From a virus: 61,408 nucleotides of DNA. Shown piece after piece: positions 16,061 to 39,772 of this stretch. The position numbers were made by a program, and so were the translations under genes. The stretch is taken from positions 1 to 61,408 of IMG/VR virus record IMGVR_UViG_3300029258_001409, one strand, 5' to 3'. A model generated the notes under the pieces. It made no database searches and was not told where the DNA came from. It saw only the letters and a program-made list of their open reading frames with translations. Positions within the stretch are counted from its first letter, which is position 1, and every line of letters begins with the position of its first letter.

Positions 16061-16078
16061 ACAGGAGTGATCGGACTG

Positions 16079-21104: not shown

Positions 21105-23933
21105 ATGGAGTACGACTTCAAGAAAGCAATCTACGACAGCTCCTACGCTAGCGAAATGGCAGCGCAGCGAGAGTTCGCATTGGCCCGGCGCGTGGCCGAG
21201 GCGCGGGCCGAGGTCGCTCGTGCGGTCTCCACATCTGCCTCGGGAACGGACTGGATGCCTCCCGACCAGGCGGACCTGATGAAGGCGATCAGCTCAGTAC
21301 GGAATGAATCCAGGATCGCCTCGATCATGGGAACACTGATCGACCCCCGCGCCGTGTCTCACGACCATAGCGGCGCCCGCAAGAAGCCGACCCTCATGGA
21401 CTTCAATATCCTCCGGCGCCTGTCCTACGCGTGCGAACCCATTCGAGTTGCCATCGAATACCGGAAGACTCAGATCCGCATGGCAAAGTGGCGGGTCTGC
21501 CTGGCTGACGAGGATGAGGAGGCCACCGACCAGCAGGAAGCCCAGATGAAAGAAATCGAGCGGCTTCTGAAGCGGAAAAACAGGAACAAGGACTCTCTCT
21601 CTCGCACCCTGGAGAAAGCGACGGAAGACCTGCTGGCGCTCGATGCGGGATGTGTCCAGGTGGTGCCCTCCAGGGCGGGCAAGTATGGCGAGATGGTCGC
21701 GATGGACGGTGCAACCATCCGACCGAAGGTGACGAAGAAAGGCATTCTCGATCCGAAGACTCCCTACATCCAGTGGATCGAGAATCAGATCACGGGGAAG
21801 TTCCGGGCCCTGGGGCTCCCGGGAATGACGCAGGGGACCCTCGATAAACCAGCCATGATCTACATGATGCAAAACCCCGTCACGAACATCTTCATGAACG
21901 GCTACGGGGTATCTCCCATCGAGATGTTGATTACGGCAGTCACCGCCCTGGTCCACGGAAGCCGGTACAACGCGGATTACTTCTACGGGCCCAAGGTGCC
22001 CGAAGGGCTGCTGTATCTCGGGAGTGCGGCTACACAGAAGGACGTGACGTACTTCCGGTACTTCTGGGAGCACGAGCTTTCCCAGGGGTGGGCCATTCCG
22101 GTCGTCGGCGGCGGCTACCGCCCGGATCACACACACGCGCCGACTCCTCCACAGTTCATCCCGTTCCATCGCAGCCCGAAAGAGATGCAGTTCCATGAGT
22201 ACATCCAGTGGCTCACGCGGCTTGTGTGCGCCGCCTTCCAGATTCCGGTAGAGGAGATCGGCCTGGCGCAGCGGAGTTACGGGCCCGGCCAGAGCGGCCC
22301 GATGTTCGAGGCCAACAAGGAACCCACCCTGGACACCAGCCGGGATTGGGGACTGAAGCCTCTCCTACAGCTCATCGCGTATGAAATCACAGAGGTCGTC
22401 CAGCATTTCTGGGGAGACGAGTATCGGTTCGACTTCGTGTTGCCGCATGTGAAGGACAACGCCAAGGAAGCCACCCGAGTTGAGGTCCTGACGAAGGCGG
22501 GTCTATTCCACGAGGATGCAAGGCAGCTTTTCCTCGAAAACCAGAAGCGGGAAATTGCGGGGCTCGATCCGCTATCGGAGGACCAGTGGAAGCAGATCCA
22601 GGAAGCCAGAGAGAAGGCACAGAAGGAAGCGCAGGAACAGCAGATTGCCATGCAGCAGCAGATGGCAGGCCCAGGGGCAACCCCCGGCGCGAATGGTGAG
22701 GGAGGGGAGGGCAAGGAAGGGCCGTCGGGAGTCCCCCGGGTGGCAGGTGCATCGGGAGTTGACCGTCCCGATACGACGCCGCAACGCCCCTCTCGGCGGC
22801 CCGCTACATCTACCGAGGACGAGGAGAAGAAGAAGCGCGAGCGGGAGAAGAAGCGATCCGCCATCGTAAAGCCAAGGCCGATCGTGGCGAAGGCCCTTGG
22901 CCTTCCTGGAGGCGGACTGATTCACGATCTGTCCCGAGATGACTTCTTCGATGACCAGGAGACCGAGGACCTGGCGAGGGAGTGGGAGTCTGAGATCCGA
23001 CGGATTCTCATGAACATGGTCGAGGACCTGGGGGATCTCCTGGGTGTGGGCCGGAGCATCGACCTGGGCCCGCTTGCGAAGGCCCTCGATCCACCCACAG
23101 GGGGGATGCTGGCCGGAGAACTGCCCTGGGACGAAGTAGAGAAGATCATGGACCGGCACCTGAACGGGATCTGGATGACGGTCCAGGACAAGGCTTACGT
23201 CGACGCGGTCACAGCCGGGGCCATCCGGGAGCCATCGGCGATTTACACGCCGCTCCTGGCGCCGGTCTCCCTGCCGAAATCGTTCAACTTCCCGACCAGG
23301 GCCTACATGGTGGGTCAGAAGATCGCCGCCACGGTGCTCAGGGGGCAGGGGTTGTTTTCGGGAGGCGCCCGGACCCTCGTGCGACCCGAGGAGATCGACT
23401 GGTTGAGGCAGCACACCTTCTGGCTCATCAAAGGACAGACCCAGAAGGTGAAAAACCAGATCCAGCGGGTGATGATGGAGGAGCGGCACAAGGGAACTCA
23501 CCCGTTCCAGATCAAGACCAAGATGACCGACATGATCGGCGACTTCATGACGGACTATCGCCGGATCACTCGCACGGAGACCAGCCGGTCGCAAACCCAG
23601 GCATTCTACAAGGAACTTCTGGCGGCTGGAGAGGAAGAATGTACGTTTCTGCCTCACGCTGGCGCGTGTCGGCATTGCCAGAGGCTGATCGAAGGTCGGG
23701 TGTTCCGAATCAAAGACATCATGCACGTGACGAACTTCAACAAGCGGGTGGATGAATGGGAGCCGTGTTGTCCGCTCCATCCGAATTGCAAACATAGACC
23801 TAGCCCGGTTGTGTCCGGTCGATTGTCCCTGACCGAGCGGGAGCCGGGGAAGGAGCTCAAAGAGGACTACAATGTCGCGGTGAGGGAGTTGGAGGAGGCC
23901 CTGGCGGCGTCCGGGGCGAAGGTTCCATTCTAA
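21105..23933 (+). CDS. Portal protein fused to a MuF-like minor head protein (942 aa)
   Basis: Residues about 90-520 form a portal (YACEPIRVAIEYRKTQIRMA, GYGVSPIEMLITAVTAL, TRLVCAAFQIPVEEIG). A disordered Gln/Gly/Glu linker follows (residues about 500-590). The C-terminus from about 780 is a MuF/SPP1 gp7-like domain (YRRITRTETSRSQTQAF, then a Cys/His-rich end with HAGACRHCQRL and HPNCKHRPSP). The portal is the packaging ring; MuF proteins are internal head proteins. Between them lies IVAKALGLPGG (from residue 593), resembling the separators of the downstream polyprotein. Confidence 0.85.
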   Translation: MEYDFKKAIYDSSYASEMAAQREFALARRVAEARAEVARAVSTSASGTDWMPPDQADLMKAISSVRNESRIASIMGTLIDPRAVSHDHSGARKKPTLMDFNILRRLSYACEPIRVAIEYRKTQIRMAKWRVCLADEDEEATDQQEAQMKEIERLLKRKNRNKDSLSRTLEKATEDLLALDAGCVQVVPSRAGKYGEMVAMDGATIRPKVTKKGILDPKTPYIQWIENQITGKFRALGLPGMTQGTLDKPAMIYMMQNPVTNIFMNGYGVSPIEMLITAVTALVHGSRYNADYFYGPKVPEGLLYLGSAATQKDVTYFRYFWEHELSQGWAIPVVGGGYRPDHTHAPTPPQFIPFHRSPKEMQFHEYIQWLTRLVCAAFQIPVEEIGLAQRSYGPGQSGPMFEANKEPTLDTSRDWGLKPLLQLIAYEITEVVQHFWGDEYRFDFVLPHVKDNAKEATRVEVLTKAGLFHEDARQLFLENQKREIAGLDPLSEDQWKQIQEAREKAQKEAQEQQIAMQQQMAGPGATPGANGEGGEGKEGPSGVPRVAGASGVDRPDTTPQRPSRRPATSTEDEEKKKREREKKRSAIVKPRPIVAKALGLPGGGLIHDLSRDDFFDDQETEDLAREWESEIRRILMNMVEDLGDLLGVGRSIDLGPLAKALDPPTGGMLAGELPWDEVEKIMDRHLNGIWMTVQDKAYVDAVTAGAIREPSAIYTPLLAPVSLPKSFNFPTRAYMVGQKIAATVLRGQGLFSGGARTLVRPEEIDWLRQHTFWLIKGQTQKVKNQIQRVMMEERHKGTHPFQIKTKMTDMIGDFMTDYRRITRTETSRSQTQAFYKELLAAGEEECTFLPHAGACRHCQRLIEGRVFRIKDIMHVTNFNKRVDEWEPCCPLHPNCKHRPSPVVSGRLSLTEREPGKELKEDYNVAVRELEEALAASGAKVPF

Positions 23934-25105: not shown

Positions 25106-28100
25106 ATGGGAAACGATGCGGAATTCGAACCGGGAATGGTCATGACAGTGATCGTGAAGGCAGTGCAGCGGAATCTCCCTCCTGGAGGGCAGTGGAAGAC
25201 GATCCGGGGCTCCCGCGTGTTCATCAAGGACGGGCGGGTCGTTGCCGGTCCAGCGGCGCTCCGCGGCATGGAGATGCGCCAGCAGCCAGCGGTGGCGGCG
25301 TCCGGGGCTGAAGAAGGAACGCTGCACCCCAAGTTCCCCATGGAGAAGATCCAGGCGGACCCGACGCAGGCCCGGAAGCACTTCGATGACGAGTCCCTGA
25401 GAGAGCTGGCCGAGTCGATCAAAGAGCATGGCCTGGTGCAGCCCGTCACTGTCCGCCCGATGGGCGATGACAAGTTCCAGATCGTCGCTGGAGAGCGCCG
25501 GTTCCGGGCCCACCAGCTCCTCGGGGCAAAGCACATCCGGGCACTGGTGGAGCCCATGGGGCAGGAGCGGGCCCGATCGGTTCAGCTCATCGAGAATCTA
25601 CAGCGGAAAGATCTGAATCCGATGGAGGAAGCCCACGGGTATGCCGATGCCATGGCCGAGAATCAATGGGACATCGAGCACCTGGCGAAGATGGTGAAGA
25701 AGTCCCCGGCGACTATCGAGGGAAAACTGTCCCTACGGAATCTCCTCCCCGAGTTCCAGGGCCTGGTCCAGAAGGGCCAGCTTTCGGAGACCCACGGGCG
25801 GCAGGTGGCGAAGCTGAAGCCGGACTGGCAGCGGAAGGCATTCCGGCAGATCGTGGATCGAGATCTGACCACCACCCAGACGAAAAAGGTGGTGGAAGGT
25901 CTTCTGGCATCCCAGCAGGCCGAGGAAGCCACCCAGGGGATGGGCCTGTTCAGCGCCGAGGTTATGGAGAAACTGGACACCATGACCACGAGGGAGCAGC
26001 GGGTCTTCGCAGACCGCCTCCAGCGATTCTTTGCCTCTGCGGAGCGGTTTCTGTCCGGTGTCCAGGATAAGCGCACCCAGGGACTCACCGGAGCGTTCCT
26101 GAAGGGCGATCTGGAGCGGAAGCGGGACATGATCCGGGCGATCCGCAAAGAGCTTCGGAGGGTCGAGGGCGAATTGGAAGCCCACATGGCCCGAGAGAAA
26201 GAGGGCGGCACGGCCAGGGCGAAGACCGCCGTGAATGTGGTCAGCAAGGTCAGGAAAGCCAAGAAGAAACGTCGCAGGCGCGTGACAAAGGCCCTCGCTC
26301 TCCCGGTAGTCGTGAAGGCGGCAGAGCGGAACCTGCCTTCTGGAGGGGAGTGGAAGACGATCCGGGGCTCCAGGGTCTACATCCATAATGGGCGGGTTGT
26401 GGCCGGGCCAGCGTCCCTTCATGGGCTTCAGATCGGGCAGGCGCCTAGATCGAAGGGTTCGCAGATGCCGTGGCCGAAGGAACCGACCTGGGCCAACGAT
26501 AAAACGGGCATTACGATGGTTCCGATCATCGGGGCGCAAGCGACCTTGGAGTCCTCCGGTGTGGGACTGATGGCTATGCGAGTCGAGCCGATCGCCGGGT
26601 GGAGGAAAACGCGCTATGTCGTTACGGACAACCCCACCCCGCCCCCTCAACTTGTTCTATTTCCTCAGTTGAGAGCGCGCGATACCTATTACCAGTATCA
26701 TGATGCGGCCACCTGGGCGGGTTTGAAGAAGAAGGCGCAGGCCCTTTGGGATGCCCAGGTCCAAGAGCATGAGAAGCGAACCGGAAAGGCTACCCGAGAG
26801 GGCAGTGAGTCCGAGATCTTCAGGGCCAGAATCGAGCGGGAGATTTCAGAAACGAAGGCCGGGAAGCGTCGGACGCCAATCGAGATGGGCCAGGTCCAGA
26901 GCGGTCAGGCCCTCAAGTTCCCGCCCATGGGTGGGGCGCCGCCGCCAGCAGTGAAGGTGCGGGGCCGCACGGGTGTCGCACGGCTCCAGGCCACGAAGGT
27001 GAAGCGCATTCCGGGATTCGTGAAGATCCGGGGGAGCTTCTGCAACACGCCGGAGCGGGCAGCCGGTATCTGTTCCGAGATTCGCCGGATCGACCGAGAG
27101 ACTGTCTGGACTGTCCACTGTGACGAGCGGGACCGGCCAACTTCGTGTGAATTGACATCCCTGGGGGCGATGGAGAAGACCACGTTCCACCCTCGGGACG
27201 TGCTGAAGATCTCCGCCCAGGTCGGGGCGAAGTCCGTCTGGCTGGTCCACAACCACCCGGCAGGAAACGTCACACCGTCTCTCGGCGATGTCCTCGCATT
27301 CAGGGCGTCACAACTCGCCGGAGAGGCCGTTGGGATCAAGGTGTCCGACCTGGTGGTCATCGGGAGCGGTGGACGGGCCACGAGCACGGCAAGGTTTGTC
27401 GAAACCTGCAAAGCGAATGGCCTGAGTCCTGACAGTGACGCCTCCTGGGAGGAGAACCACGGGCGCTTCCTGGAGATTGGTCAGCAGGTGTCCTTCAAGG
27501 TATCGGAGCAGAAGAAGGCTGAGCCGGTTGTTCCGCAGGTCGGCGGGACACTTTGGAGGGGGAAACTCCCCGAGGGAATGTCCGAGACCGTAGCTACCGA
27601 CCAGGAGGCCGCGCGCCTGGTGGGCCATGCGAGCAACCCGAACAAGTTCTCCGTCGTGGCGATCCACGGGAACCTGGACGGAGCGGTCAACTGCGTCGAG
27701 GTCTATGCGGCCAAGGGGCGGGAGCCGGGGCACATTCAGCGGGCGATGCAGGATGCCATTGACGGGATTCCCCAGACATCGGTTCGAACATCGAGTTCGC
27801 ATGTCTTCATCGGCTTTGGGTTCCCCGAGGGTGGGCCCGGAGGATCATTCCTCCGGGATGCTCAGGGAAAGCCCACGGCAGCCGGAGAAGTCATCATCGG
27901 GTCCGGGCCCGAGATGCTGAAGGGTGTCGGCCAGAAGCTCAACAGCGCGTTCATTCGAGTGGCCGATGTGGTGAGCGTCGAGGGCGATCGCTGGGCGGCA
28001 AGAACCACGCTGGGCAGGCAGAACGCCTTCCAGCGGTATCCATGGGATGTGCCGGACCCGCACCCGAGAAATGAGGAGTTTACCCAGGAGCAGTATGCGT

Positions 28101-31100
28101 TCGTGGGGGAGCCGCCATTCCACGAGCAGCGGGGCAAGCTACGGTCCCTGGCGAAATCCGTGGTGGTGAAGGCTGGCTGGGATGAATCGAAGCACCCGAG
28201 GGGGAGCACTGGCCGGTTCATCCGTGGGTTCGACCGGATGATTCGAGATCTGAAGGACAAGCGGGCTACATCGCTCCGCCATGTGCTTGCCGGGGCCAAA
28301 GACAGTACCGTCGTGCGATTCACGAAGCCACCGACGGTCGGCGTAGAAACGGCACAGGGGAAGAATCTCCTCTACAGAGAGGCGATCGTCCACCCGAGTG
28401 CGAAGTTCCCGGGCCGGTGGCAGATCACCTGGTTCGATACATACACACCCCAGGACGATGCCTCATGGGAGCCGAGCGGGGATGAGGAGTATCCAACGCG
28501 GAAAGCGGCGCTGAGAAGCATTGCCGGTGTCGGGACTCTTTCATTCGGCTATCCGGGGGAGTGGAAGGTGGCGCCCTTTGCTCGATCCATCATCGTCAGA
28601 TCAGCCTGGGATGAATCGAAGCACCCGCGAGTTCCAAAAGGGCAATCGGCTGGAGGTCAGTTCGGGATGTTCGGCGGCGCGGTGTCGTCGAAGGGCAAAA
28701 AGATCGTCCGGGTCCTGAGTGTGGTGGACACGCGTCAGTACGAAGAGCTGGGAGACAAGTTCCGGGCAATCCCTGGTTCTGGCCAGGAGAGCACCTGTTC
28801 CAGATGTGGGCGGACTCACGAGATCCATGCTGAGGTCGAGCTGGAGGATGGCAGCAGGGCGGTCGTGGGAACCGGCTGCATGAAGAAATCGGAGATGGCC
28901 GTCGCCTCGAAGGTGAAAAGCCTCACGAACACGGTGAAGACGATCGCCCGGAACCGCGCCAAGCTCGAGGCCCTGAAGGCAGAGAAGGCGCGGTGGGATG
29001 CTGCCTACGAAAAGATCGAGAAGAAACCTTTGCCGAAGATGACCGAGGCGACGAAGCCGATGCCCTACACGAAGCCCGAGCAGGGCCGGAACATGGTCGA
29101 ATTCAGTATGGGCCGCGGGGAAGGCCGGGCGACGACATTCTACGAAGTCTTGAATTCCAGGCACTCGGAGGACCCCGAGTACATCGAGAGTCGGTTACGT
29201 CGCTCCCGGAAAGACGCGATTGAGCGGCTTCCCGATGAATGGAGGAGGAAGCAAGTGCGGCTGCTGCTTGGGGAGAGCATGTGGAAGCCAAGGCCGGGGA
29301 CACTTGCCATCGAGGACCTGGAGAAGCGAATTGCCAAGCTGCAGAAGAAGGTAGATGAGGCAACGGCGCCGGTGGTTGTGAAGGCCGCCTGGGACGAATC
29401 CCGCCACCTAAGAGTTCCCAGAGGACAGGCGGCGGGCGGCCAGTTCATGGGCGGGGGAGCGGGAGCGATCTCCGAGAAGATCGTCCAGGTGATCGACACC
29501 GGGAAGACGCCGGACTACACAGACCTGAGCGGGGCTGGCGTCGTGGTCGAGGGCGAGATCGCCGCCACGCACATCACCGACGATCCCAGCGGGATCATCG
29601 AGATCCTGAAACAGGGGGGAAGGTTAGACCAGGGCGAAAAGGTGTGGCGAGAGCTGGGAGAGGGCCTGTATGCGAGTTCTGCCCCGCAGCTCTGGGTGGG
29701 CCGGGCGCCCGCGAAGTGGGAATTCCTTCAGGACCTGAAGCCCGAACAGAGGCGGGCGCTGGGGAATGCAATTCTGCAACACCCTCACATGACTGAACCG
29801 CACTACCTGACCGAATCCGAGCGGGATGTGGTCAAACGGGACGTGGGCTACGTGGTAGAGGGGAAGATGCACCCCGACATCCTGTCCATGTTCGCCGACC
29901 AGCCCTACAACATCGAGATATGGAGGCCGGAGTTCCTGAAGCCCCTGGGGATCGAGCCTTCGAACCGGCAACCCCTGGAGGTCCCCGTGAGGTTTCAGGG
30001 CAAGTTCGCCGAGCTCAGCGGATACCCGACAGAGGAAGAGCTGGCCCGGATGAAGGCTGCGGGATTCGCCGGGGCATTTCTACGCTCTGGATGGTCGCAC
30101 ATGCCGCAGATCGTGGTTTGGGACTCCTCGGCAGTTCGGAAGTTCGGAGAGTATGAACGCCCGTCGAAGGTCGTTGTGAAGGCTCTCCAGGGGCTCCCTC
30201 CTGGAGGGGAGTGGAAGACGATCCGGGGCTCCCGGGTCTACATCCACAACGGACGCATCGTGGCGGGCCCGGCAGCTCTCCAGGGCTTCGAGATGGGCCA
30301 GGCGAAGCAGACGGGGATCGCCCAGGGGGAGATTGATTTCTCGAAGCCAGCCGAAGGCGGGGACTCCTCACAGAAGCGCACCAGGACGCGAGCGAAGCCC
30401 GCCAAGGCAAAAGCACCGGCAGTACGACGTAGGAGTCGCCCGAAACACCTGGGAGGCTCTGGCATCAACGACGTGGGAGAGAAGATCGGCGGGGCCCGGA
30501 AGGACATCTGGTGGGACATAGCAGCCGGGCCCAGCAGCGGCGATCTCAAGGAATTGGAGAAGAACCCGGTTGAGGCACGCAGGCTCGTGTGCAAAGAGAA
30601 GATTCTTGGAAAGTTCACAGTGGATGCCCAGAGAGATCTGGGGAGGACCGGGGGAGCCGCTTACTTCTGGAAGAAGATCCACGGGGCCATCCTGGTGCGC
30701 CCATCCGATGACCCGATGCATCGGGCCCGGTACATGAGAGGCTGTCATCTGCTCCAGGAGGCTACCCAGAAGGCCAGAACCGTTGTGGACATGAAAGAAG
30801 CCATGTCGGGCCTGGTGGATCTCTGGAACAAGGACGAGGACGAGAGGGCGGCGCTCGGTAGCCTGGGCAAGAAATTCCGAACCCATGCCCTCGGGGGCGG
30901 ATACTCGAACACCCGGTGGAAGATCATGCGGGACGCCACGCACTATGAGGCGATGGAAAACGATCCCGACATGATCGCTCTCCTGGACCTGGTGAAGAAG
31001 CCGGAGGAGTTCCAGGCGCGGCTCCAGAAGAAGAATCCGATGCTGGCGGCCCAACTCAAGGCCCGCCCATCGCTCATGGGACAGGTACTGGCCCGCATCG

Positions 31101-34100
31101 ACCCCTGGGGGTGGGCTACGAAGGCAGATGGGGGCACTGGAGAGAGGAAGAAACGGAAGCGGGTCATCCGGCCCGTTCCCCAGGAGGCGCGCAGGAGCGG
31201 AAAGAAGCTGCATCAGTATCCCGTCCCCTCGCCCGAGGAATTGATCGAGCAGTACGGCCTCCGGGGAGCCGAGTTCGGCAATTGGGTGAACGATCGCCAT
31301 AGGCAATGGCATGTATGGCAGGCCCACATGGCATTCGGGGATCTCGCCCAGGTCCTCGGAATCGAACCGGCGCAGGTGAGCGGTCGGGGGAACCTGGGAA
31401 TCGGATTCGGGGCCCGAGGGACCGGATGGGCTGCGGCGCATTACGAACCGGCCAAGGTCGTAATGAACCTCACGAGAAACCGTGGCGGCGGATGCCTCGC
31501 ACATGAGTGGGGTCACTTCCTCGATAACTTCCTGGCCGGGGCGCGAGCGAAAAAGCCCTCCACCAGATGGATCAGTCACTTTGGCGACCGCGTGGCGCTC
31601 GGCAAGGAACGAACGATCGACAAGGATCTGGAAAAGGCGATCACAGGCGTGATGAAGGCAATCAAAGAGAAGCCCGTGGACACCAGATCCGAGAAGACGC
31701 AGTACACCGCCATCTCGAAGCGCGGAATTGAGCAGGCCGAGAAAGCAATGCCGCCACATCTGCGGGCCACCGACGAGAATTCCGCTCAGATCATGCGCGC
31801 CCTGAATCTGTTCCGGGAGTGGGTGGGCCCGACGCACAAGCCCCATGCTGTCATGGGCGGGAGGAAAAGGAAACCGACGATCGCCGAGGCCGTGAGGATG
31901 ATCTACACCACGCCCGGGCTCAACATTACCCGGAAGTCTCCGACAACGGTAGCCGCGGAAATGAAGCGGGCACTATTCAAGGGCCCCGAGGCTCTACCGA
32001 AGGCGAAGTTCACGAAGGACGACCATGCCGCGGTCGACGCGCTGGTCCATGCCCTCTCGCCCAAGAGCAAGCTCAGCAGCTACGCGCTGATTCGCTGGGC
32101 TCGGGACATGGACGATGCGTACAAGGCCGCTGACAATACCATGAAATGGGTGGAGTCCAGGAAGCAGATCTCCGAAAAACACACGCTGACCACCACATCT
32201 GACTTCCTGCGACGTTCCCGGAAGCTCTCGAAGTCAGGTGACTATTGGCAGCGTCCCCATGAGATGTTCGCCAGGGCATTCGAAGCCTACGTGCAAGACC
32301 GCCTTGGAGCCATGGGGGCTGAGAACACCTATCTCGTGTTCGGGACGCGCGAGGGGGACTACGATCCAGATATCCCGCATCCCTACCCGCTCGGAGAGGA
32401 GCGGAAGGCCATCAACGCCTCGATGGACAATCTCCTGAAGGTGCTGAGGAAGAAGAAGCGTCTGCTGAAGGCGCTGGTCGATACCGCCGCCTTCGCATTC
32501 TCCGGTCATCCGGTGGTCGTGAAGGCATTCATGCTGAAGCCGGGAGAGACATTCCCCGTCTGGAGGACGATCCGCGGCACGAAGGTCCAGATTGGCCCAG
32601 GTGGAGTCATCATGAAGGGCCCGGATGCTCTGCGGGGTACGAAGGTCACGGGCCTGGGGGTCTCGGAGAAACCGAAGATTGCTGGGGTGAAGGTCCGGGG
32701 AGGGCGATCATTCCAGGAGACACTGCGGGGCCCGGGAGAGGCCAAGTGGATCACTCTTGCGCCATCGACCTACACGATGGGAGAGGAGCGGCTGCATCGC
32801 GTCAAGGTGAAGGGTGAGTGGATTGTCTCCGGGCGATTCAAGGGGATGCGCGTGGAGGACATGGTTCGTCACGGGCGCCTGAGAGAATCGAAGCGGTACA
32901 TCTACGACCCCGAGACCGGCGCCGTGGAGAAGATGCAAGTCAGGGCTGCTGACGGGCGCATGTACTGGCGAGTCAAGGGGCAGGCGATGGCGATACGGAA
33001 AGGCAATCGCCTCCTGGTCATGCTTCCGGCCAGCATGACGAAGGAACGAGTGACACTGGAGAAGATGGGCTTCGGCAAGCGCAGCGGAAACCAGTTCTGG
33101 GTGACGCCGAAGGACTTCGACCAGGTGGCCGATGTGTTGGGCGGCTTGTCGCTCGACCACCATGCGGATCACTTCCTGAAATCCTTCGCTGACCAGGAGG
33201 CCAAGCGTGAGTCCTACCGCGAAGCCGAGAGCATGAAGGAACTCCAGGCGTTCAACATGGGCCAGGTTCCCGGCCTGCGCCCGAACGGAGATCCGAGGAC
33301 CGGCATCGGCAGAATCGACCACCTTCACGAGTACCAACTGAGGGGCATCCACTGGTTCTGCAATACAGGTTCCGGGATTATGGGCTGGGACATGGGCATG
33401 GGGAAAACGATTGGCTCGATCGCGGCGATGATGCGTCTTTCCGCAGACGGGAAATTGAAAGAGAACGGCAGAAATGGCCGCGTGCTTGTCATTGTGCCGC
33501 CCAACCTCAGAGATAACTTCGCCGAGGATGTGGGCAAGTACACCAGCGCGTCTGTATCGCTCGATGGCAAGGACCCGAGCGCCATGTTCCAGGTAACATC
33601 CTACGAGATGTTTACCCGACATCCCGAGCGGTTCAAGGGGCAGTGGGGCGCCCTCGTGATGGACGAGGCCCATTACATCAAGCGGGACTCGAAACGGACC
33701 CGCCAGATCCACGCGAGCCTCATGGATGTGCCCTTCAAGATGGCATTGACGGGGACGCCGATGACGGTCTCTCCGCTGGATCTCTACAACATCGTGGCGT
33801 TCGTTGCCCCGGAAGGACTCTACAGCCAGACGGAGTTCAAGCAGAAGTTCATGCTCATGGAGGGCGGTCGCTGCATTGGGATCAATCCTGAGCACCTGGA
33901 CGAGCTCCGCGGGTGGGCGAAGAAGTATTGCCTCTACCTGCGGGCGGAGGACTGGCTGAAGAAACTCCCGAAGGCCACTCCAGTCAATCAGTCTCATGTG
34001 AACATCGGAATGACGCCGGGCCAGGCACGGCTCTACGAGCGGTGGACGAAGGTGAACGAGCGTATCGAGGCGAAGATGTATGCCCGCCTCCAGGCCGAAA

Positions 34101-34924
34101 CCGGACAGAAGAATCCGACCATGACGGATGAAGACCGGGATCGGCTGAGGAAGATGGTATCTGACACGATCAGCGTGAAGGGGAAGCGCGTTCGAGTGCA
34201 GGGCGAGCGGGTATGGCAGACACTCAGGACGATCGAGAACACTCCGGGAGCGATAGATCCGAGACTGGCCGGTGAGAACCCCAAGCTGGACGCCATGATG
34301 GAGCTCATCCAACAGCATCAGGCGAAACCCAAGATGCGCTCCGGGGAACCAACCAAGCGGGGGAAGACGATCATCTTTGCGGGCTCAGTGGCCCTACAGA
34401 AGGCCATCATTGAGCGGCTGAAGAAAGAGCATGGCGAGCAGTCGATGTGCGGGGTGGTTCACGACGGGAATTTCGTTGGCGGGCGGAGGGTGTCATCGAA
34501 GGACACGGCAGCGGTGGTGGATCACTTCAACAACGATCCTGATGCTCAATTCGTGGTGCTCTCGACCAAGCGGGGCAAGGAAGGGTTGAATCTCCAGTCT
34601 GCCAGCCAGGTGATTCATGTCGATCAGCCATTCACCCATGCAGATCACCGGCAGGCCACGGCACGCGCCGTGAGACAGGGCAATCAATATGAGTCCGTTG
34701 ACGTTCACACCATCGTGATTCATCCACCGAAGCACTTGGGCGTGGAGTCGGTGGACCAGGGCACGACCAGGAGGAATATCGAGCGGGAGCGCATGGTCAA
34801 TCAGCTCCTCGGCGGCGAGGTTCCGGCTTCGGCTGGCATGAGTTCGTCGCAATACAGGAGGGTATACAGCAGTGACATTGAAAAAGCAAAACAGCAGGGG
34901 GTCAGGGTCCGCCCCGCCGCCTAG
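25106..34924 (+). CDS. Giant polyvalent protein: ParB, JAB/RadC, LPD1-metallopeptidase, SNF2 helicase (3272 aa)
   Basis: In order: a ParB-like nuclease domain with GERRFRA (about 75-150) and ParB-type helices (150-290); a JAB/RadC-like domain with HNHPAGN (H715, H717); a small Cys4-like zinc finger (C1231, C1234); an unassigned 1428-1688 module; an IGGARKD-containing region; an LPD1 domain with metallopeptidase HEWGH (H2133-H2137); and an SNF2 helicase with GWDMGMGKT (K2767), DEAH (2853-2856) and a C-terminal RecA half. Seven V-V-V-K-A-like motifs (15, 401, 1019, 1162, 1423, 1689, 2470) separate the modules. Such proteins are thought to be packaged and injected with phage DNA to counter host defences. 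ATG 25136 is an alternative start. Confidence 0.9.
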   Translation: MGNDAEFEPGMVMTVIVKAVQRNLPPGGQWKTIRGSRVFIKDGRVVAGPAALRGMEMRQQPAVAASGAEEGTLHPKFPMEKIQADPTQARKHFDDESLRELAESIKEHGLVQPVTVRPMGDDKFQIVAGERRFRAHQLLGAKHIRALVEPMGQERARSVQLIENLQRKDLNPMEEAHGYADAMAENQWDIEHLAKMVKKSPATIEGKLSLRNLLPEFQGLVQKGQLSETHGRQVAKLKPDWQRKAFRQIVDRDLTTTQTKKVVEGLLASQQAEEATQGMGLFSAEVMEKLDTMTTREQRVFADRLQRFFASAERFLSGVQDKRTQGLTGAFLKGDLERKRDMIRAIRKELRRVEGELEAHMAREKEGGTARAKTAVNVVSKVRKAKKKRRRRVTKALALPVVVKAAERNLPSGGEWKTIRGSRVYIHNGRVVAGPASLHGLQIGQAPRSKGSQMPWPKEPTWANDKTGITMVPIIGAQATLESSGVGLMAMRVEPIAGWRKTRYVVTDNPTPPPQLVLFPQLRARDTYYQYHDAATWAGLKKKAQALWDAQVQEHEKRTGKATREGSESEIFRARIEREISETKAGKRRTPIEMGQVQSGQALKFPPMGGAPPPAVKVRGRTGVARLQATKVKRIPGFVKIRGSFCNTPERAAGICSEIRRIDRETVWTVHCDERDRPTSCELTSLGAMEKTTFHPRDVLKISAQVGAKSVWLVHNHPAGNVTPSLGDVLAFRASQLAGEAVGIKVSDLVVIGSGGRATSTARFVETCKANGLSPDSDASWEENHGRFLEIGQQVSFKVSEQKKAEPVVPQVGGTLWRGKLPEGMSETVATDQEAARLVGHASNPNKFSVVAIHGNLDGAVNCVEVYAAKGREPGHIQRAMQDAIDGIPQTSVRTSSSHVFIGFGFPEGGPGGSFLRDAQGKPTAAGEVIIGSGPEMLKGVGQKLNSAFIRVADVVSVEGDRWAARTTLGRQNAFQRYPWDVPDPHPRNEEFTQEQYAFVGEPPFHEQRGKLRSLAKSVVVKAGWDESKHPRGSTGRFIRGFDRMIRDLKDKRATSLRHVLAGAKDSTVVRFTKPPTVGVETAQGKNLLYREAIVHPSAKFPGRWQITWFDTYTPQDDASWEPSGDEEYPTRKAALRSIAGVGTLSFGYPGEWKVAPFARSIIVRSAWDESKHPRVPKGQSAGGQFGMFGGAVSSKGKKIVRVLSVVDTRQYEELGDKFRAIPGSGQESTCSRCGRTHEIHAEVELEDGSRAVVGTGCMKKSEMAVASKVKSLTNTVKTIARNRAKLEALKAEKARWDAAYEKIEKKPLPKMTEATKPMPYTKPEQGRNMVEFSMGRGEGRATTFYEVLNSRHSEDPEYIESRLRRSRKDAIERLPDEWRRKQVRLLLGESMWKPRPGTLAIEDLEKRIAKLQKKVDEATAPVVVKAAWDESRHLRVPRGQAAGGQFMGGGAGAISEKIVQVIDTGKTPDYTDLSGAGVVVEGEIAATHITDDPSGIIEILKQGGRLDQGEKVWRELGEGLYASSAPQLWVGRAPAKWEFLQDLKPEQRRALGNAILQHPHMTEPHYLTESERDVVKRDVGYVVEGKMHPDILSMFADQPYNIEIWRPEFLKPLGIEPSNRQPLEVPVRFQGKFAELSGYPTEEELARMKAAGFAGAFLRSGWSHMPQIVVWDSSAVRKFGEYERPSKVVVKALQGLPPGGEWKTIRGSRVYIHNGRIVAGPAALQGFEMGQAKQTGIAQGEIDFSKPAEGGDSSQKRTRTRAKPAKAKAPAVRRRSRPKHLGGSGINDVGEKIGGARKDIWWDIAAGPSSGDLKELEKNPVEARRLVCKEKILGKFTVDAQRDLGRTGGAAYFWKKIHGAILVRPSDDPMHRARYMRGCHLLQEATQKARTVVDMKEAMSGLVDLWNKDEDERAALGSLGKKFRTHALGGGYSNTRWKIMRDATHYEAMENDPDMIALLDLVKKPEEFQARLQKKNPMLAAQLKARPSLMGQVLARIDPWGWATKADGGTGERKKRKRVIRPVPQEARRSGKKLHQYPVPSPEELIEQYGLRGAEFGNWVNDRHRQWHVWQAHMAFGDLAQVLGIEPAQVSGRGNLGIGFGARGTGWAAAHYEPAKVVMNLTRNRGGGCLAHEWGHFLDNFLAGARAKKPSTRWISHFGDRVALGKERTIDKDLEKAITGVMKAIKEKPVDTRSEKTQYTAISKRGIEQAEKAMPPHLRATDENSAQIMRALNLFREWVGPTHKPHAVMGGRKRKPTIAEAVRMIYTTPGLNITRKSPTTVAAEMKRALFKGPEALPKAKFTKDDHAAVDALVHALSPKSKLSSYALIRWARDMDDAYKAADNTMKWVESRKQISEKHTLTTTSDFLRRSRKLSKSGDYWQRPHEMFARAFEAYVQDRLGAMGAENTYLVFGTREGDYDPDIPHPYPLGEERKAINASMDNLLKVLRKKKRLLKALVDTAAFAFSGHPVVVKAFMLKPGETFPVWRTIRGTKVQIGPGGVIMKGPDALRGTKVTGLGVSEKPKIAGVKVRGGRSFQETLRGPGEAKWITLAPSTYTMGEERLHRVKVKGEWIVSGRFKGMRVEDMVRHGRLRESKRYIYDPETGAVEKMQVRAADGRMYWRVKGQAMAIRKGNRLLVMLPASMTKERVTLEKMGFGKRSGNQFWVTPKDFDQVADVLGGLSLDHHADHFLKSFADQEAKRESYREAESMKELQAFNMGQVPGLRPNGDPRTGIGRIDHLHEYQLRGIHWFCNTGSGIMGWDMGMGKTIGSIAAMMRLSADGKLKENGRNGRVLVIVPPNLRDNFAEDVGKYTSASVSLDGKDPSAMFQVTSYEMFTRHPERFKGQWGALVMDEAHYIKRDSKRTRQIHASLMDVPFKMALTGTPMTVSPLDLYNIVAFVAPEGLYSQTEFKQKFMLMEGGRCIGINPEHLDELRGWAKKYCLYLRAEDWLKKLPKATPVNQSHVNIGMTPGQARLYERWTKVNERIEAKMYARLQAETGQKNPTMTDEDRDRLRKMVSDTISVKGKRVRVQGERVWQTLRTIENTPGAIDPRLAGENPKLDAMMELIQQHQAKPKMRSGEPTKRGKTIIFAGSVALQKAIIERLKKEHGEQSMCGVVHDGNFVGGRRVSSKDTAAVVDHFNNDPDAQFVVLSTKRGKEGLNLQSASQVIHVDQPFTHADHRQATARAVRQGNQYESVDVHTIVIHPPKHLGVESVDQGTTRRNIERERMVNQLLGGEVPASAGMSSSQYRRVYSSDIEKAKQQGVRVRPAA

Positions 34925-34931
34925 CGAGGAC

Positions 34932-35225
34932 ATGGTTCCCGTAACTACACGAGCGCAGGAAGCGGGAGACGTGCAGCTCTTGTCTGAGTCCGGTCCCTTC
35001 CCGCTCGACGCGTATCGAAATCTTCAGAATCGGAACCAGGCCCTGGGGTGCCTGATCTGGTTTTCGGAGGAGTACAACCGCCGCAATCTGCGTGTGGAGG
35101 ACGGGCTGACAGACGAGCAGATTCGGGGGCTTTGGAGGGATCTGTACGAGGCTTGTGTTCGATTCAAGGTGCCCCTGGACGGGGAGCACATGGCGAGAGC
35201 GAAAAAGCTGGGGGTCCTACGATGA
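34932..35225 (+). CDS. Hypothetical protein (97 aa)
   Basis: ATG 34932 after AGCGAGGA clears the polyprotein stop; GTG 34872 would overlap it by 53 bases. The protein is helical (ALGCLIWFSEEYNRRNL, LWRDLYEACVRFKVP). It ends in an ATGA overlap with the next gene. The family is unknown. Confidence 0.55.
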   Translation: MVPVTTRAQEAGDVQLLSESGPFPLDAYRNLQNRNQALGCLIWFSEEYNRRNLRVEDGLTDEQIRGLWRDLYEACVRFKVPLDGEHMARAKKLGVLR

Positions 35226-36352
35226 TTCGCATTCAGGCATCACCGACGACAACCAAGTCTGTCCATCTTCGAAAGGGCGAGACCTATCCCGTATGGAGAA
35301 CTGTCCGTGGTGCGAAGGTCCGCATTCGGGATGCCTCTGGGACGGTCTCCGCAGGACCCGCGGCCCTGAAGGGAAGGAAGATCGGCGGGGCAAAGGTATC
35401 GAGGGCGGAGAGGGTGCCCCGAGCAGAGCGCCGGTCGGCCATGCGATCGCATCTGGCATCCCAGGAGAGCGCAGCGAAGTGGAATCGGACCCTTCGCCAG
35501 AAGGGCATCACGAGCACCACACACAGCAGCGAGACCTATGTTCCCCCGCGACCTGGTCGGGCCGGGATGATTATTCCTCCTGGTCGGAGATCCACACCCA
35601 GACACACACCGGCCCTCCCCGGCGTGAAGCGCAAGGGACTTCTCGGATCGACGCGCACGAAGCGTGCTCCCTCCCCCGGCTCCGGGAAGGCAAAGGCGAT
35701 GGAGATGGAGCAGGTGGAGCGCAGAAAGGCGACATCGAAAGAGCCTGAAGAGCGTGAGGCCACCCTTCGGGCCGAACAGGAGGGAAAGGCCGCTAAGGCG
35801 AAACGGAAGACCATGCGACGGGCCCAGGAGCGGTATGCGGATCGCCTGACGAAGAAACATGGCCCGGATGTCGAGGCGGCGAAGCGGGAAGCCACCGCTG
35901 AGGCATCCACCAGGATTCGACCGAAGCCGCTCTCCCCGAGTGAGAAGGCCGCCGTGAAGAAACAGCCTCCATGGCCCAGCCCGAGAGAGTCGATTGCCTC
36001 TGGGGCTCGGAACATCATCGGGAAGCGATCCGTGAAGCGTAAGACCGCCCTTGGGGGCGGAGGTCGCGTGGCGTCGGTGCCGAAACCCGGATCGAAGAAA
36101 GCCATCGAAATGGGCCAAGTGAGAAGTGCCGGCCGCGGTGGGTTTTCGAATCCAGAGGCCCAGGCGGCCAGGATCGCGAATACGAATGCGGCACAGTCGA
36201 TCGAGAGCCATATCAGTTTCGCCGATCGAATGGCCCAGACGGGGGCGACGCCCAACGAGAGGATCGGCTGGCAGCAGGTAGCGAATGCCCTGCGGACGAT
36301 GAAGCGCCGCGGGGAATATACGGTCGGCGTGGGGGTCCACGCGAGGGGATAG
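35222..36352 (+). CDS. Basic protein with a polyprotein-type linker module (376 aa)
   Basis: Residues about 10-50 (KSVHLRKGETYPVWRTVRGA, then AGPAALKG) closely match the linker that begins the SNF2 part of the polyvalent protein (GETFPVWRTIRG). The rest is Lys/Arg/Ala-rich and probably disordered, apart from a short C-terminal helical segment. The EMEQV and EMGQV motifs also recur from the polyprotein. It is probably an internal head protein and a fellow protease substrate. Confidence 0.55.
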   Translation: MIRIQASPTTTKSVHLRKGETYPVWRTVRGAKVRIRDASGTVSAGPAALKGRKIGGAKVSRAERVPRAERRSAMRSHLASQESAAKWNRTLRQKGITSTTHSSETYVPPRPGRAGMIIPPGRRSTPRHTPALPGVKRKGLLGSTRTKRAPSPGSGKAKAMEMEQVERRKATSKEPEEREATLRAEQEGKAAKAKRKTMRRAQERYADRLTKKHGPDVEAAKREATAEASTRIRPKPLSPSEKAAVKKQPPWPSPRESIASGARNIIGKRSVKRKTALGGGGRVASVPKPGSKKAIEMGQVRSAGRGGFSNPEAQAARIANTNAAQSIESHISFADRMAQTGATPNERIGWQQVANALRTMKRRGEYTVGVGVHARG

Positions 36353-36691: not shown

Positions 36692-38254
36692 ATGGATGGC
36701 AACCAGCTCTGGCAGATAATCAGCGGAATGATGGCCGCCCAGGGGGTCGAGGACATCCCGATCCAACTGACGGTCACGAAATCAGCCGAGGCCACGGATG
36801 ACGGTCCATGGCTGATCGAGGGAGAAGCAGGTGGAGATGGGTTGGATCTGATCCGAGAGTCGTTGGATATGGGCTTCATCGCCAAGACGCTCGGGTATCT
36901 GAAGGCCCATGGGAAACTCACTTGGGACCATTCCAACTTGCTCCACCCGGACCCGGAGAAGCGAGGAGTTGATCCCGAAGACCTGGTTGGAGAAATCAGG
37001 GATGCCGGGGTCAGAAAGGCTGCGGATGGATCGGTTGTGCTCTGGGTGAAGGGAGAGCTCAACAAGGCCAAGAAGAAGGCCCGGGATCTCTGGGACTACT
37101 TCAAGGGCGGTCAGAAGCTCGGAATGAGCATAGAGGGAATCCGACTGGCGACGAAGAACATGGTGGGCCAGGACGGACCCTTTTTGCGGCTCACGCCGCT
37201 TATCACCAACGTGGCTCTGACGTACAAGCCCATGTATCCGGGAACCTGGGCGATGGCGTTCAAGGCGCTGCACGATGGTAACGTGGAATCGGTGGTCGCT
37301 GGTTTGGCCCCCGACTCCGAAACCGGGTCAGATCTGACCCAGCAACAGGAGGGATTTCAGATGCAGAGAGGACAGGCAGGAACGGCGTTCGGGCTTCCGG
37401 GGGCAGTCGCACCGGGCGAGGCCGGACACGTTGCGGACCCGTCATTCCGGGAGCCGATGACGCTGCTTGAGGCGTTGACCAGCGTGTTGCAGCAGGGACT
37501 TCCGGCACTGAAAACGGTGTCGGGCGTTCTCGACGCCAATCGGGACCGGGAAATCATGGGCGATGCCGTGGCGGGCCTGGATGGCATGATCTTCCAGGTC
37601 ATGGAGGAGCTGGCCGTCATCAAGGCCATGATTTCATTCGAAGATCGCCATCCCGAGATTGCCGGGGATGCCACTCTCAAGGCCGCCGCCTTTTCCGGTG
37701 ACGGCGATGGGGATGGCGACGGCGACGAGGAGGGAAGCATCGAGGGCGACCTGGGCGGGGATGGCGACGAGGAGGGCGATGGAGGCGGAGAGGGAAGCGC
37801 CCCGACCGTCGGCGAGGATGTCATCAAGGCCGCCATGCAGCTTGGGGCCCACGCTGCCATGGAGAAAATGGAACCCGTTCTGAAGGCTCTCGGCGGTCGT
37901 CTCGAAGCGATTGAGGGGATGCCGGTGGAGCGTGCCGGAATCGGCGGATCGCCGGACGGTGAACCTCTCGGTCTCACCACTCCGCTGAATGCGGGTGGCG
38001 GAGCCGATGGCGGGTTGCCTCCGTGGCTGCCGCCGCAGCCCGGCGCCGGAATGCGCGGCGATACCGTCGCCCTCAAGAGCGGGCACAATGTCGCATTTTC
38101 CGACATCATGCGCGAAGCGTCCCGGGAGAACGGTTCTGTTCCCCCGGAGGCCGTTGCACACCTGGTCATGCGGAAGGGCGGCATGAAAGGCGGAGAGGAA
38201 TTGATCCCGGGTCTCGAAATTCCGGTGGCAGACGACTCGGCTCCCTGGGGCTAG
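36692..38254 (+). CDS. Prohead protease with C-terminal scaffold region (520 aa)
   Basis: ATG 36692 after GGAGGGATCTCG begins an HK97-type (S78/U35-like) serine protease. It has GKLTWDHSN with the catalytic His (H80), ELNKAKKKARDLWDY and GQKLGMSIEG with the nucleophile (S146). The protease spans about residues 20-195. The remaining 320 residues are acidic and low-complexity with helical parts, typical of a scaffold. A TVTKS motif at 27-31 resembles the polyprotein separators and may be a self-cleavage site. It precedes the major capsid gene. Confidence 0.85.
   Translation: MDGNQLWQIISGMMAAQGVEDIPIQLTVTKSAEATDDGPWLIEGEAGGDGLDLIRESLDMGFIAKTLGYLKAHGKLTWDHSNLLHPDPEKRGVDPEDLVGEIRDAGVRKAADGSVVLWVKGELNKAKKKARDLWDYFKGGQKLGMSIEGIRLATKNMVGQDGPFLRLTPLITNVALTYKPMYPGTWAMAFKALHDGNVESVVAGLAPDSETGSDLTQQQEGFQMQRGQAGTAFGLPGAVAPGEAGHVADPSFREPMTLLEALTSVLQQGLPALKTVSGVLDANRDREIMGDAVAGLDGMIFQVMEELAVIKAMISFEDRHPEIAGDATLKAAAFSGDGDGDGDGDEEGSIEGDLGGDGDEEGDGGGEGSAPTVGEDVIKAAMQLGAHAAMEKMEPVLKALGGRLEAIEGMPVERAGIGGSPDGEPLGLTTPLNAGGGADGGLPPWLPPQPGAGMRGDTVALKSGHNVAFSDIMREASRENGSVPPEAVAHLVMRKGGMKGGEELIPGLEIPVADDSAPWG
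37347..37353 (+). promoter_or_regulatory. Internal Shine-Dalgarno for the nested scaffold
   Basis: AGGAGGG lies seven bases before the in-frame ATG 37361, inside the protease-scaffold gene. A near-perfect ribosome site at this place strongly suggests independent initiation. Confidence 0.7.
37361..38254 (+). CDS. Nested scaffolding protein (297 aa)
   Basis: Translation from ATG 37361, in the same frame as the protease, would produce only the C-terminal scaffold, as in lambda C/Nu3. The product has a helical part (MTLLEALTSVLQQGLPALK), a long Asp/Glu/Gly run (about residues 113-145) and a C-terminal helix-loop region. Scaffolds guide capsid assembly and are then removed by the protease. Confidence 0.65.
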   Translation: MQRGQAGTAFGLPGAVAPGEAGHVADPSFREPMTLLEALTSVLQQGLPALKTVSGVLDANRDREIMGDAVAGLDGMIFQVMEELAVIKAMISFEDRHPEIAGDATLKAAAFSGDGDGDGDGDEEGSIEGDLGGDGDEEGDGGGEGSAPTVGEDVIKAAMQLGAHAAMEKMEPVLKALGGRLEAIEGMPVERAGIGGSPDGEPLGLTTPLNAGGGADGGLPPWLPPQPGAGMRGDTVALKSGHNVAFSDIMREASRENGSVPPEAVAHLVMRKGGMKGGEELIPGLEIPVADDSAPWG

Positions 38255-38326: not shown

Positions 38327-39772
38327 ATGTACAACACTCTGGCAGGACCGGGAGGGATCTCCGCACAGGTATCGGCGGACCCGACCCGGTGGGCGGCAAG
38401 GGCCGATGCTCTCGGGCTGGGCATGGCCCCCGACACATTGAAAGCCCTTACCACGGTGGGTGCGGACAGAACGCGCTCAACGCACGCCATGATCGGGGAG
38501 AGTCTGGACCCCGTTGTCAAGGTGCTGACCGCGCGCTCGCCGTACCACACACCCTTCCTGACCAGGCTGCGGACCCGTCGGGCATTCTCGACGGTTGAGG
38601 AGTTCAACCGCCTCACCAGCCTGGGAGACAAGGGTTCATTCATGCCGGAAGGTGCGCTTCCCCGAGAGGCCACCAGCCAGTATGAGCGGGCAGTCGCGAA
38701 CATGCGATTCGCCGGTCAGACGGGCGTTATCACGGGCCCGATGATGGCAGCGGCCCGCGCCAAGTTCGGCAACATGAAGTCAATCGAGATGGTGAACAGG
38801 ACGAACCGGATTCTCCTCGACACTGAGGATGCTCTTTTCTGGGGAAACTCCTCCACCATCCCCTACGCGTTCGATGGTGTGTTTGCCCAGATCGGAGCTG
38901 CGGGTGCGAATCACCTGAGCATTGATCTGCGCGGAAAACCCATCGACACCTACTACGTCAGTCGCGCGTGCCGGATGATCTGGCAGAGGCATGGGGTCCC
39001 GACTCTCATGATGTTCTCCCCGCGCGAGGAGGAGTACGTTTCCAGACTCCAGAATCCGCACCGGAGAATCGAGGGGACGGACGTTGGGCCGGTCACGGCA
39101 GGGATGGTGGTCAACAAGTTCAAGAGTCCGTTCGGGCTCGTGGACATGATCTATGACCTGTTCCTGGCCGAGCCGACCGAGCCGAGGACCGAAGCCGCAC
39201 AGTGCGAGGACATGGCTCCTCCGGTCATCAGTACGGTGGTTGCGGCGGCTGCCGCGTCCGAAGCCACATCCAAGCTCCCCGCGGGAAGCTACACCTACAG
39301 CGCGGCGGGCATCAATATGTTCGGAGAAGGCCCGGAGAAAGCCATTGTTGGCACGGTGGACCCGACTGCGGGACAGAAAGTCACAGTTACGATCCCGAGT
39401 GACGACAGCAACAGCGGCTATGTGACAAAGACCGAGTACGGCGTGACCTACGACAACAAGCCGACGGCATACAAGATTTACCGTGGGCTTGGCAGTGGGG
39501 CCCGCCAGTACGTCACAACGGTCGCATGGGCTGGGACGGGTGTGGATACGACCTATGTGGATCTCGATACCTATATGGCCGGGACCACGAGGGCGCTCGT
39601 CATGTCCGAAGCGGCAATCGCCCTGGCATACCTCCAGCGGCTCCAGACGTTTGATCTGGCGCGCGTGACGGATGCCGAGCGTTTCATGATCGTGCAGTAC
39701 CTGGGGCCGTTGGTGTATGCGCCTCAGTGGATTGTGGAGATTCTGAACATCGGAGAACCGCCCACTCCATAG
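38327..39772 (+). CDS. Major capsid protein with Ig/FN3-like insertion (481 aa)
   Basis: ATG 38327 follows ATAGGAGGC. Position after the protease and scaffold, and regions such as FNRLTSLGDKGSFMPEG and TLMMFSPREEEYVS, fit an HK97-fold capsid protein. Residues about 296-412 form an Ig/FN3-like insertion (PAGSYTYSAAGINMFGEGP, TAYKIYRGLGSG), after which the capsid fold resumes (LQTFDLARVTDAERFMIVQ). Such insertions decorate the shell. DPVVKVLT at residues 61-68 could be a protease site releasing a 65-residue N-terminal peptide, but this is weak. Confidence 0.8.
   Translation: MYNTLAGPGGISAQVSADPTRWAARADALGLGMAPDTLKALTTVGADRTRSTHAMIGESLDPVVKVLTARSPYHTPFLTRLRTRRAFSTVEEFNRLTSLGDKGSFMPEGALPREATSQYERAVANMRFAGQTGVITGPMMAAARAKFGNMKSIEMVNRTNRILLDTEDALFWGNSSTIPYAFDGVFAQIGAAGANHLSIDLRGKPIDTYYVSRACRMIWQRHGVPTLMMFSPREEEYVSRLQNPHRRIEGTDVGPVTAGMVVNKFKSPFGLVDMIYDLFLAEPTEPRTEAAQCEDMAPPVISTVVAAAAASEATSKLPAGSYTYSAAGINMFGEGPEKAIVGTVDPTAGQKVTVTIPSDDSNSGYVTKTEYGVTYDNKPTAYKIYRGLGSGARQYVTTVAWAGTGVDTTYVDLDTYMAGTTRALVMSEAAIALAYLQRLQTFDLARVTDAERFMIVQYLGPLVYAPQWIVEILNIGEPPTP

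What the first reader, a model, noticed from the sequence alone, without database searches (positions are those of the whole stretch)
25106..34924. Seven V-V-V-K-A separators divide a 3,272-aa polyvalent protein into modules
Seen: the motif [VI][VI]V[KR][AS] occurs at residues 15, 401, 1019, 1162, 1423, 1689 and 2470. Each is preceded by a low-complexity or basic stretch and followed by one of two linker types, then a new domain (ParB, JAB/RadC, zinc finger, unassigned, LPD1-metallopeptidase, SNF2). Known: polyvalent phage proteins are believed to be injected with the DNA and to need processing. Inference: the motifs are cleavage sites, probably of the prohead protease encoded 1.8 kb downstream, so the head would carry at least seven separate effectors.
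Basis: partly seen in the sequence, partly recalled or inferred. Interest (0 to 1): 0.88.

Follow-up and report, generated by a model that had tools for sequence, protein, structure and literature searches.

The report
Phage effector polyprotein with cleavage sites
A giant phage protein looks like a chain of seven enzymes joined by cut sites for the phage's own capsid-maturation protease, and other phages use the same tags with differently coded cut sites, so a phage may pack a whole set of early-infection proteins from one gene.

Summary
[VI][VI]V[KR][AS] occurs at residues 15, 401, 1019, 1162, 1423, 1689 and 2470 of the 3,272-aa ORF (0.07 expected by shuffling), each followed by one of two tags: WKTIRG..V.I..G..V.GP..L.G, or WDESKHPR..G..F. 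The cleavage reading is well supported by indirect evidence. The protease is SPO1-type. In the same phage, [VIL]K|[AS] sites fill the scaffold part of the protease ORF and sit in the MCP N-terminus, and a similar site lies between the fused portal and MuF domains. A matrix trained only on scaffold and MCP sites ranks six of the seven separators in the top 32 of 11,287 positions. Across phages the tags are widespread. The residue before the cut differs by phage (K, D or N), but recurs in that phage's own head proteins: record G045 uses [LMV]AMD|[ASN] in portal, effector leader, scaffold and MCP (5 seen, 0.007 expected); record G043 uses N|[AS]. Best explanation: prohead proteases cut tagged polyvalent proteins into separate packaged modules. 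Cleavage, packaging and injection are not shown experimentally. The HEWGH metallopeptidase is a weaker rival. Novelty: new variant of a known kind.

The parts
25106..34924 (+). 3,272-aa polyvalent polyprotein ORF
25148..25162 (+). separator 1 VIVK|A (residues 15-19); would release an 18-aa leader
26306..26320 (+). separator 2 VVVK|A (residues 401-405)
28160..28174 (+). separator 3 VVVK|A (residues 1019-1023)
28589..28603 (+). separator 4 IIVR|S (residues 1162-1166); the weakest by matrix score
29372..29386 (+). separator 5 VVVK|A (residues 1423-1427)
30170..30184 (+). separator 6 VVVK|A (residues 1689-1693)
32513..32527 (+). separator 7 VVVK|A (residues 2470-2474)
25160..26317 (+). module 1: type-1 tag + ParB_N/HTH_ParB (residues 19-404)
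26318..28171 (+). module 2: type-1 tag + RadC/JAB and an unassigned C-terminal part (residues 405-1022)
28172..28600 (+). module 3: type-2 tag + unassigned domain (residues 1023-1165)
   Evidence: no match
28601..29383 (+). module 4: type-2 tag + Cys motif (CSRC...GTGC) and coiled-coil-like region (residues 1166-1426)
   Evidence: sequence; weak PADLOC LmuB match E 9e-4
29384..30181 (+). module 5: type-2 tag + unassigned domain (residues 1427-1692)
   Evidence: no family match; AlphaFold model uninformative
30182..32524 (+). module 6: type-1 tag + HEWGH metallopeptidase-like region and LPD1 (residues 1693-2473)
32525..34921 (+). module 7: type-1 tag + SNF2 helicase (residues 2474-3272)
36770..36784 (+). 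TVTK|S near the protease N-terminus, possible self-cleavage site (matrix rank 46)
37613..38080 (+). scaffold region holding five sites AVIK|A, ATLK|A, DVIK|A, PVLK|A, VALK|S (starts 37613, 37670, 37817, 37874, 38066)
38432..38446 (+). MCP N-terminal site DTLK|A (MCP residues 36-40)
38327..39772 (+). major capsid protein, related to SPO1 gp6.1 (PDB 9vel)
22878..22907 (+). PIVAK|ALGLP between portal and MuF-like domains of the 942-aa fusion
21105..23933 (+). portal-MuF fusion protein
35222..36352 (+). separate 376-aa basic gene starting MIRIQASPTTTK|SVHLRKGETYPVWRTVRGAKV: leader + type-1 tag outside the polyprotein

Best explanation
The gene encodes a polyvalent polyprotein of seven tagged modules: ParB, RadC, an unassigned module, a Cys-motif module, another unassigned module, HEWGH metallopeptidase/LPD1, and SNF2 helicase. 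Each [VI][VI]V[KR][AS] is a cleavage site, cut after K/R, for the phage's own SPO1-type prohead protease. The polyprotein would be brought into the prohead as one chain. When the protease is activated it would trim the MCP N-terminus, chop the scaffold, probably separate portal from MuF, and release the seven modules, each starting with a type-1 or type-2 tag, to be ejected with the DNA. Shown here: the anatomy, the sequence relationship of protease and MCP to SPO1 proteins, the shared site signature, and its covariation with MCP and scaffold sites across phages. Inferred: actual cleavage, packaging in the head, injection and the role of the tags.
For: 1) One motif precedes two unrelated tags, so it has a role apart from either tag. 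2) K[AS] is enriched in this phage's scaffold part (6 of 10 K; [VILMAT]K[AS] 5 seen, 0.63 expected, p~0.0007) and in SPO1 and Fi4S2 scaffolds, but not in tail proteins. 3) A matrix trained only on scaffold and MCP sites puts six of seven separators in the top 32 of 11,287 positions, and the two best non-training positions are separators. 4) Protease matches SPO1-type maturation proteases (hhalign probability 97.4); MCP and terminase are SPO1-type; MCPs of the SPO1 group carry a K|A near the N-terminus. 5) P1 covaries between phages: G045 uses [LMV]AMD|[ASN] in portal, effector leader, scaffold and MCP (5 seen, 0.007 expected, none in 34 other ORFs); G043 uses N|[AS] in separators, MuF, protease, scaffold and MCP; scaffold-enriched P1 equals separator P1 in G043 (N), G016, G013, G018 (K) and weakly G022 (D); most phrog_264 MCPs from tag-bearing phages have xMD|[AS] (one YD|A) near the N-terminus beside D-type tag leaders. 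6) Upstream 6-mers are alike within records and not between them (8.67 against -1.88, p 2e-4). 7) Copies of the motif use different synonymous codons, against recent duplication as the only cause.
Against: No experimental cleavage data. K[AS] dipeptides are common, and the polyprotein as a whole is not enriched for them. The IIVR|S site scores low (rank 390), as do TTTK|S (109) and TVTK|S (46). The D-class phages are related to one another, so they are not independent counts; scaffold boundaries were set by eye. Several tag-bearing records (G006, L121, L057) show no clear matching MCP site, and G045 could not be judged by the scaffold-enrichment test. Large virion cargo proteins can be packaged and ejected without reported cutting (N4 vRNAP, crAss001 cargo). 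No SPO1-like locus among 80 carries the tags, and no close relative of the polyprotein was found, so conservation of the sites in orthologues is untested.
Confidence: 0.75

Rival explanations
1. The HEWGH metallopeptidase in module 6 cuts the polyprotein itself, during assembly or after injection, as Iyer et al. suggested for P1 DdrB.
For: HEWGH and LPD1 are present; autoprocessing by such domains is proposed in PMC5512222.
Against: Seven of eight other tagged polyproteins examined have no HExxH; the motif is shared with MCP and scaffold, the usual prohead-protease substrates.
Confidence: 0.07
2. The motif is not cut: with the tag it forms a binding signal for scaffold or MCP that brings the protein into the prohead (a repeated capsid-targeting sequence).
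For: In G045 and relatives one N-terminal leader precedes different tags and different proteins, as expected of a targeting signal; P1 DarB has such an N-terminal signal of at most 30 residues (PMC9024508).
Against: One signal would suffice for one chain, yet seven copies sit between domains; the same residues occur inside scaffold regions and at the MCP N-terminus with small P1' residues. The two roles can coexist, as in T4 internal proteins (own knowledge).
Confidence: 0.1
3. The motif is only a by-product of tag duplication and module shuffling by recombination.
For: Tags are repeated and modules are clearly shuffled between phages.
Against: Motif and tag copies differ at synonymous codons; the motif is shared by two unrelated tags and resembles sites in untagged proteins.
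Confidence: 0.05
4. A host protease cuts the chain after injection.
For: Ejection with unfolding and refolding in the host is proposed for crAss001 cargo, so cutting could follow entry.
Against: P1 tracks the phage's own head proteins, not a host feature, as far as tested.
Confidence: 0.03

Closest known systems
Polyvalent proteins of phages (Iyer, Burroughs, Aravind 2017, PMC5512222)
   Same: Several unrelated enzyme domains in one chain, in the head gene region; same domain types (ParB, RadC, MPTase/LPD1, helicase). The paper already proposes processing by MPTase or assemblin-like peptidases.
   Different: No recognition site or inter-domain tag turned up in the paper by term search; here a repeated site matching the phage's own MCP and scaffold sites maps the cuts.
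SPN3US gp245 prohead protease and its head-protein substrates (PMC10052503)
   Same: One prohead protease cuts many head proteins at one motif (A-X-E, Ser preferred at P1').
   Different: There, apart from self-cleavage, the reported cuts remove N-terminal propeptides; here a polyprotein would be cut into seven modules, after K/R.
P1 Dar proteins: DarA cut by Pro, DarB capsid-targeting N-terminus (PMC9024508, PMC12810830)
   Same: Head-packaged anti-restriction proteins; leader sequence; MCP (E120|S121) and DarA cut by the same protease.
   Different: Separate genes; DarA loses one N-terminal segment; no series of modules.
SPO1 (Herelleviridae) head module: protease gp3.2, scaffold gp3.3, MCP gp6.1
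   Same: Related protease, MCP and terminase; scaffold rich in K|S.
   Different: No polyprotein or tags in 80 SPO1-like loci; protease and scaffold are separate genes in SPO1.

Membership tests
Polyvalent proteins (Iyer 2017) | two or more biochemically unrelated domains in one polypeptide | tested here: met
Polyvalent proteins (Iyer 2017) | encoded among virion structural genes | tested here: met
   portal upstream, protease and MCP downstream
Polyvalent proteins (Iyer 2017) | delivered into the host with the DNA | not testable with these tools
   needs virion proteomics and an injection assay
SPO1-type head maturation protease | sequence relationship to SPO1-group proteases | tested here: met
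   hhalign probability 97.4, E 1.5e-11; phrog_1028 E 3e-4
SPO1-type head maturation protease | catalytic His and Ser at aligned positions | tested here: met
   H80 in TWDH and S146 in GMSIEG align with SPO1 FDH and GFSVEG
Pfam Peptidase_S78 (PF04586) | match to the Pfam profile | tested here: not met
   no PF04586 match to the window protease in the Pfam scan at E up to 1; it is therefore filed with SPO1-type proteases, not under PF04586
SPO1-type head maturation protease | assemblin-like fold | tested here: inconclusive
   single-sequence AlphaFold model, pLDDT 39
Prohead-protease substrates | site like that of MCP and scaffold of the same phage | tested here: met
   six of seven sites in the top 32 of 11,287 positions
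Prohead-protease substrates | cut in virions | not testable with these tools
   needs mass spectrometry
Capsid-targeting leader (T4 IPIII, P1 DarB type) | short N-terminal leader shared by different packaged proteins | tested here: inconclusive
   shared leader seen in G045 relatives; in the window only an 18-aa leader and a 12-aa leader that differ

The most novel reading that the evidence does not exclude
Tailed phages widely use a general polyprotein system: two interchangeable tags (WDESKHPR..G..F and W.T(I/V)..G..V.I..G..) mark head-packaged effectors, and each phage writes its own prohead-protease site before each tag, also inside portal and protease genes, so that effectors can be added to any head gene as cassettes and are freed during head maturation.
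Probability: 0.5. Interest if true: 0.88.

Novelty: new variant of a known kind. Interest (0 to 1): 0.78.

Why it matters
It gives a concrete, testable answer to how very large polyvalent proteins are made usable: the cut sites can be read from the sequence, because they match the phage's own MCP and scaffold sites. The tags give a search handle for head-packaged effectors, including small ones and those fused to portal or protease genes, and the site lets protease specificity be predicted phage by phage. If right, one phage gene delivers a set of seven early proteins.

Tried and rejected
No close relatives of the polyprotein, MCP or terminase in IMG/VR by single-sequence scans; an alignment scan found one 58%-identical terminase on a 6.7-kb contig without the region (L156). 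Type-1 tag pattern scans found nothing, so type-1 relatives were found only through the type-2 loci. Short tag queries against cultured phages gave nothing useful (the query was a made-up composite and its one match is not to the tag). Pfam S78 and Phage_capsid searches over 50 tag-bearing records found few. AlphaFold models of module 5 and of the protease were too poor to use, so no fold search was run. An early guess that G006 would show a D-type MCP site was not borne out. MCP frames were first misread for several loci and corrected with an HMM. No paper on K|S cleavage of SPO1-group MCPs was found in the library; that statement would rest on memory and was not used as evidence.

Full report
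Observation. The ORF at 25106-34924 is a single 3,272-aa frame. The motif [VI][VI]V[KR][AS] is at residues 15, 401, 1019, 1162, 1423, 1689 and 2470; shuffled versions average 0.07 matches, and the only other match in any ORF of the window is an antisense one. Four copies are followed by a type-1 tag (WKTIRGSRV.I..GR.VAGPA.L.G or a variant) and three by a type-2 tag (WDESKHPR...G..F). Domains found by Pfam lie between the sites: ParB, RadC, LPD1, SNF2. The statement that each site follows a basic or low-complexity stretch holds only for some.

The phage. The window is a whole IMG/VR record classed as linear. Terminase, MCP and protease are distant relatives of SPO1 proteins: terminase about 26% identity over 92%, MCP matching SPO1 gp6.1, PDB 9vel, E 4e-35, protease matching a profile of three SPO1-group proteases at 97.4% probability with the catalytic His and Ser aligned. 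The protease ORF continues into a scaffold-like part; the portal is fused to a MuF-like domain.

The site signature inside this phage. In the scaffold part six of ten lysines are followed by A or S, five of them after a hydrophobic residue (0.63 expected, p about 0.0007). The same enrichment marks the SPO1 and Fi4S2 scaffolds and is absent from tail proteins. The MCP has DTLK|ALTT near its N-terminus, and four MCPs of the SPO1 group have a K|A near theirs (MAFFT did not align the window's K with the others, so the match is by eye). A scoring matrix trained only on the five scaffold sites and the MCP site, then run over 11,287 positions of 18 proteins, puts two separators first among non-training positions, five in the top 15 and six in the top 32; the IIVRS site is rank 390. 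The portal-MuF junction PIVAK|ALGLPGG is rank 20. The neighbouring gene at 35222 begins with TTTK|S and a type-1 tag, and the protease has TVTK|S near its start; both score lower.

Other phages. The pattern WDESKHPR was found in 119 viral stretches before the scan stopped at its limit, often two to six times in one ORF. The residues just before the tag are similar within a record and different between records (mean BLOSUM 8.67 against -1.88 for shuffled, p 2e-4; part of this may come from tag duplication). Type-1 and type-2 tags are interchangeable: in G045 and its relatives the same leader MNTQQRAILSKARRLLAMD precedes either tag.

Covariation of P1. In G045 the motif [LMV]AMD|[ASN] occurs in the portal N-terminus, the effector leader, twice in the scaffold part behind the DUF2213 protease, and in the MCP N-terminus: five times against 0.007 expected, and in none of 34 other ORFs. 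In G043 the residue is N: KIKN|AEWDESKHPR twice, separating effector modules from the portal in one ORF, KIYN|A in the MuF protein, KLKN|A at the protease start, VIEN|A, TMLN|A, DMIN|A and QMQN|S in the scaffold, RLFN|S and RLLN|A in the MCP. MCPs of G043 and G045 belong to the same family (phrog_264), so the change is in the site, not in the capsid type. In the window, G016, G013 and G018 the residue most enriched before A/S in the scaffold is K, in G043 it is N, in G022 weakly D (p 0.14), in each case the residue used before the tags; G045 could not be judged by this test. Most other phrog_264 MCPs in tag-bearing phages show D-type sites (MD|[AS], one YD|A) beside D-type leaders; L121 and L057 show no clear site. 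Related phages are over-represented in this D class, so independent events are few: a K group of several phages, a D group, and one N phage.

Mechanism. The simplest account is that each phage's prohead protease cuts its MCP, scaffold and tagged proteins at one site type. In the window phage this would cut the polyprotein into an 18-aa leader and seven tagged modules. Precedents for one protease acting on several kinds of head protein are SPN3US gp245, motif A-X-E (PMC10052503), and P1 Pro acting on MCP and DarA (PMC12810830; PMC9024508). Polyvalent proteins as a class, and the idea that assemblin-like or MPTase peptidases process them, are from PMC5512222; term searches of that paper found no recognition site or tag described.

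Rivals. The HEWGH metallopeptidase could act instead, but seven of eight other tagged polyproteins lack HExxH. A pure targeting role for the motif is possible and could coexist with cutting. Duplication alone does not explain synonymous codon differences between copies or the presence of the motif before two unrelated tags. Not every giant cargo protein is cut, so a need for cutting cannot be assumed.

Verdict. Packaging, injection and the identity of modules 3 and 5 remain open.

Noticed in passing
window 21105-23933, site at 22878-22907: Portal and MuF-like domains are fused in one 942-aa ORF with a separator-like PIVAK|ALGLPGGG between them, resembling the start of the type-1 tag.
   Followed up: partly
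window 35222-36352: A separate very basic 376-aa gene starts with a short leader, TTTK|S and a type-1 tag; no family match.
   Followed up: partly
L141:3019-5106: Terminase ORF of record G043 seems to carry an intein-like insert in its P-loop (starts CIHGDS, ends NGIIHHN before SGKS); read by eye only.
   Followed up: no
window 16067-18319 and L156 ORF at 2: A large secreted-looking protein beside the terminase, seen also in the 58%-terminase relative L156; GDxH, GNHE and GDQH motifs suggest a metallophosphoesterase, by eye only.
   Followed up: no
L110 (7,465 bases): One ORF holds several ART-like modules between type-2 tags and a YSPNQPR..G..W variant, next to a protease-like ORF that itself carries two tags (KKAG and VVKAG before WDESKH).
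   Followed up: no
L084: Tags preceded by xxAAG (AIVAAG, AVTAAG, VLRAAG) suggest a further P1 class not tested against its MCP.
   Followed up: no
window 28601-29383 (module 4): Weak PADLOC match to LmuB (E 9e-4), overlapping the coiled-coil-like part; probably composition.
   Followed up: no
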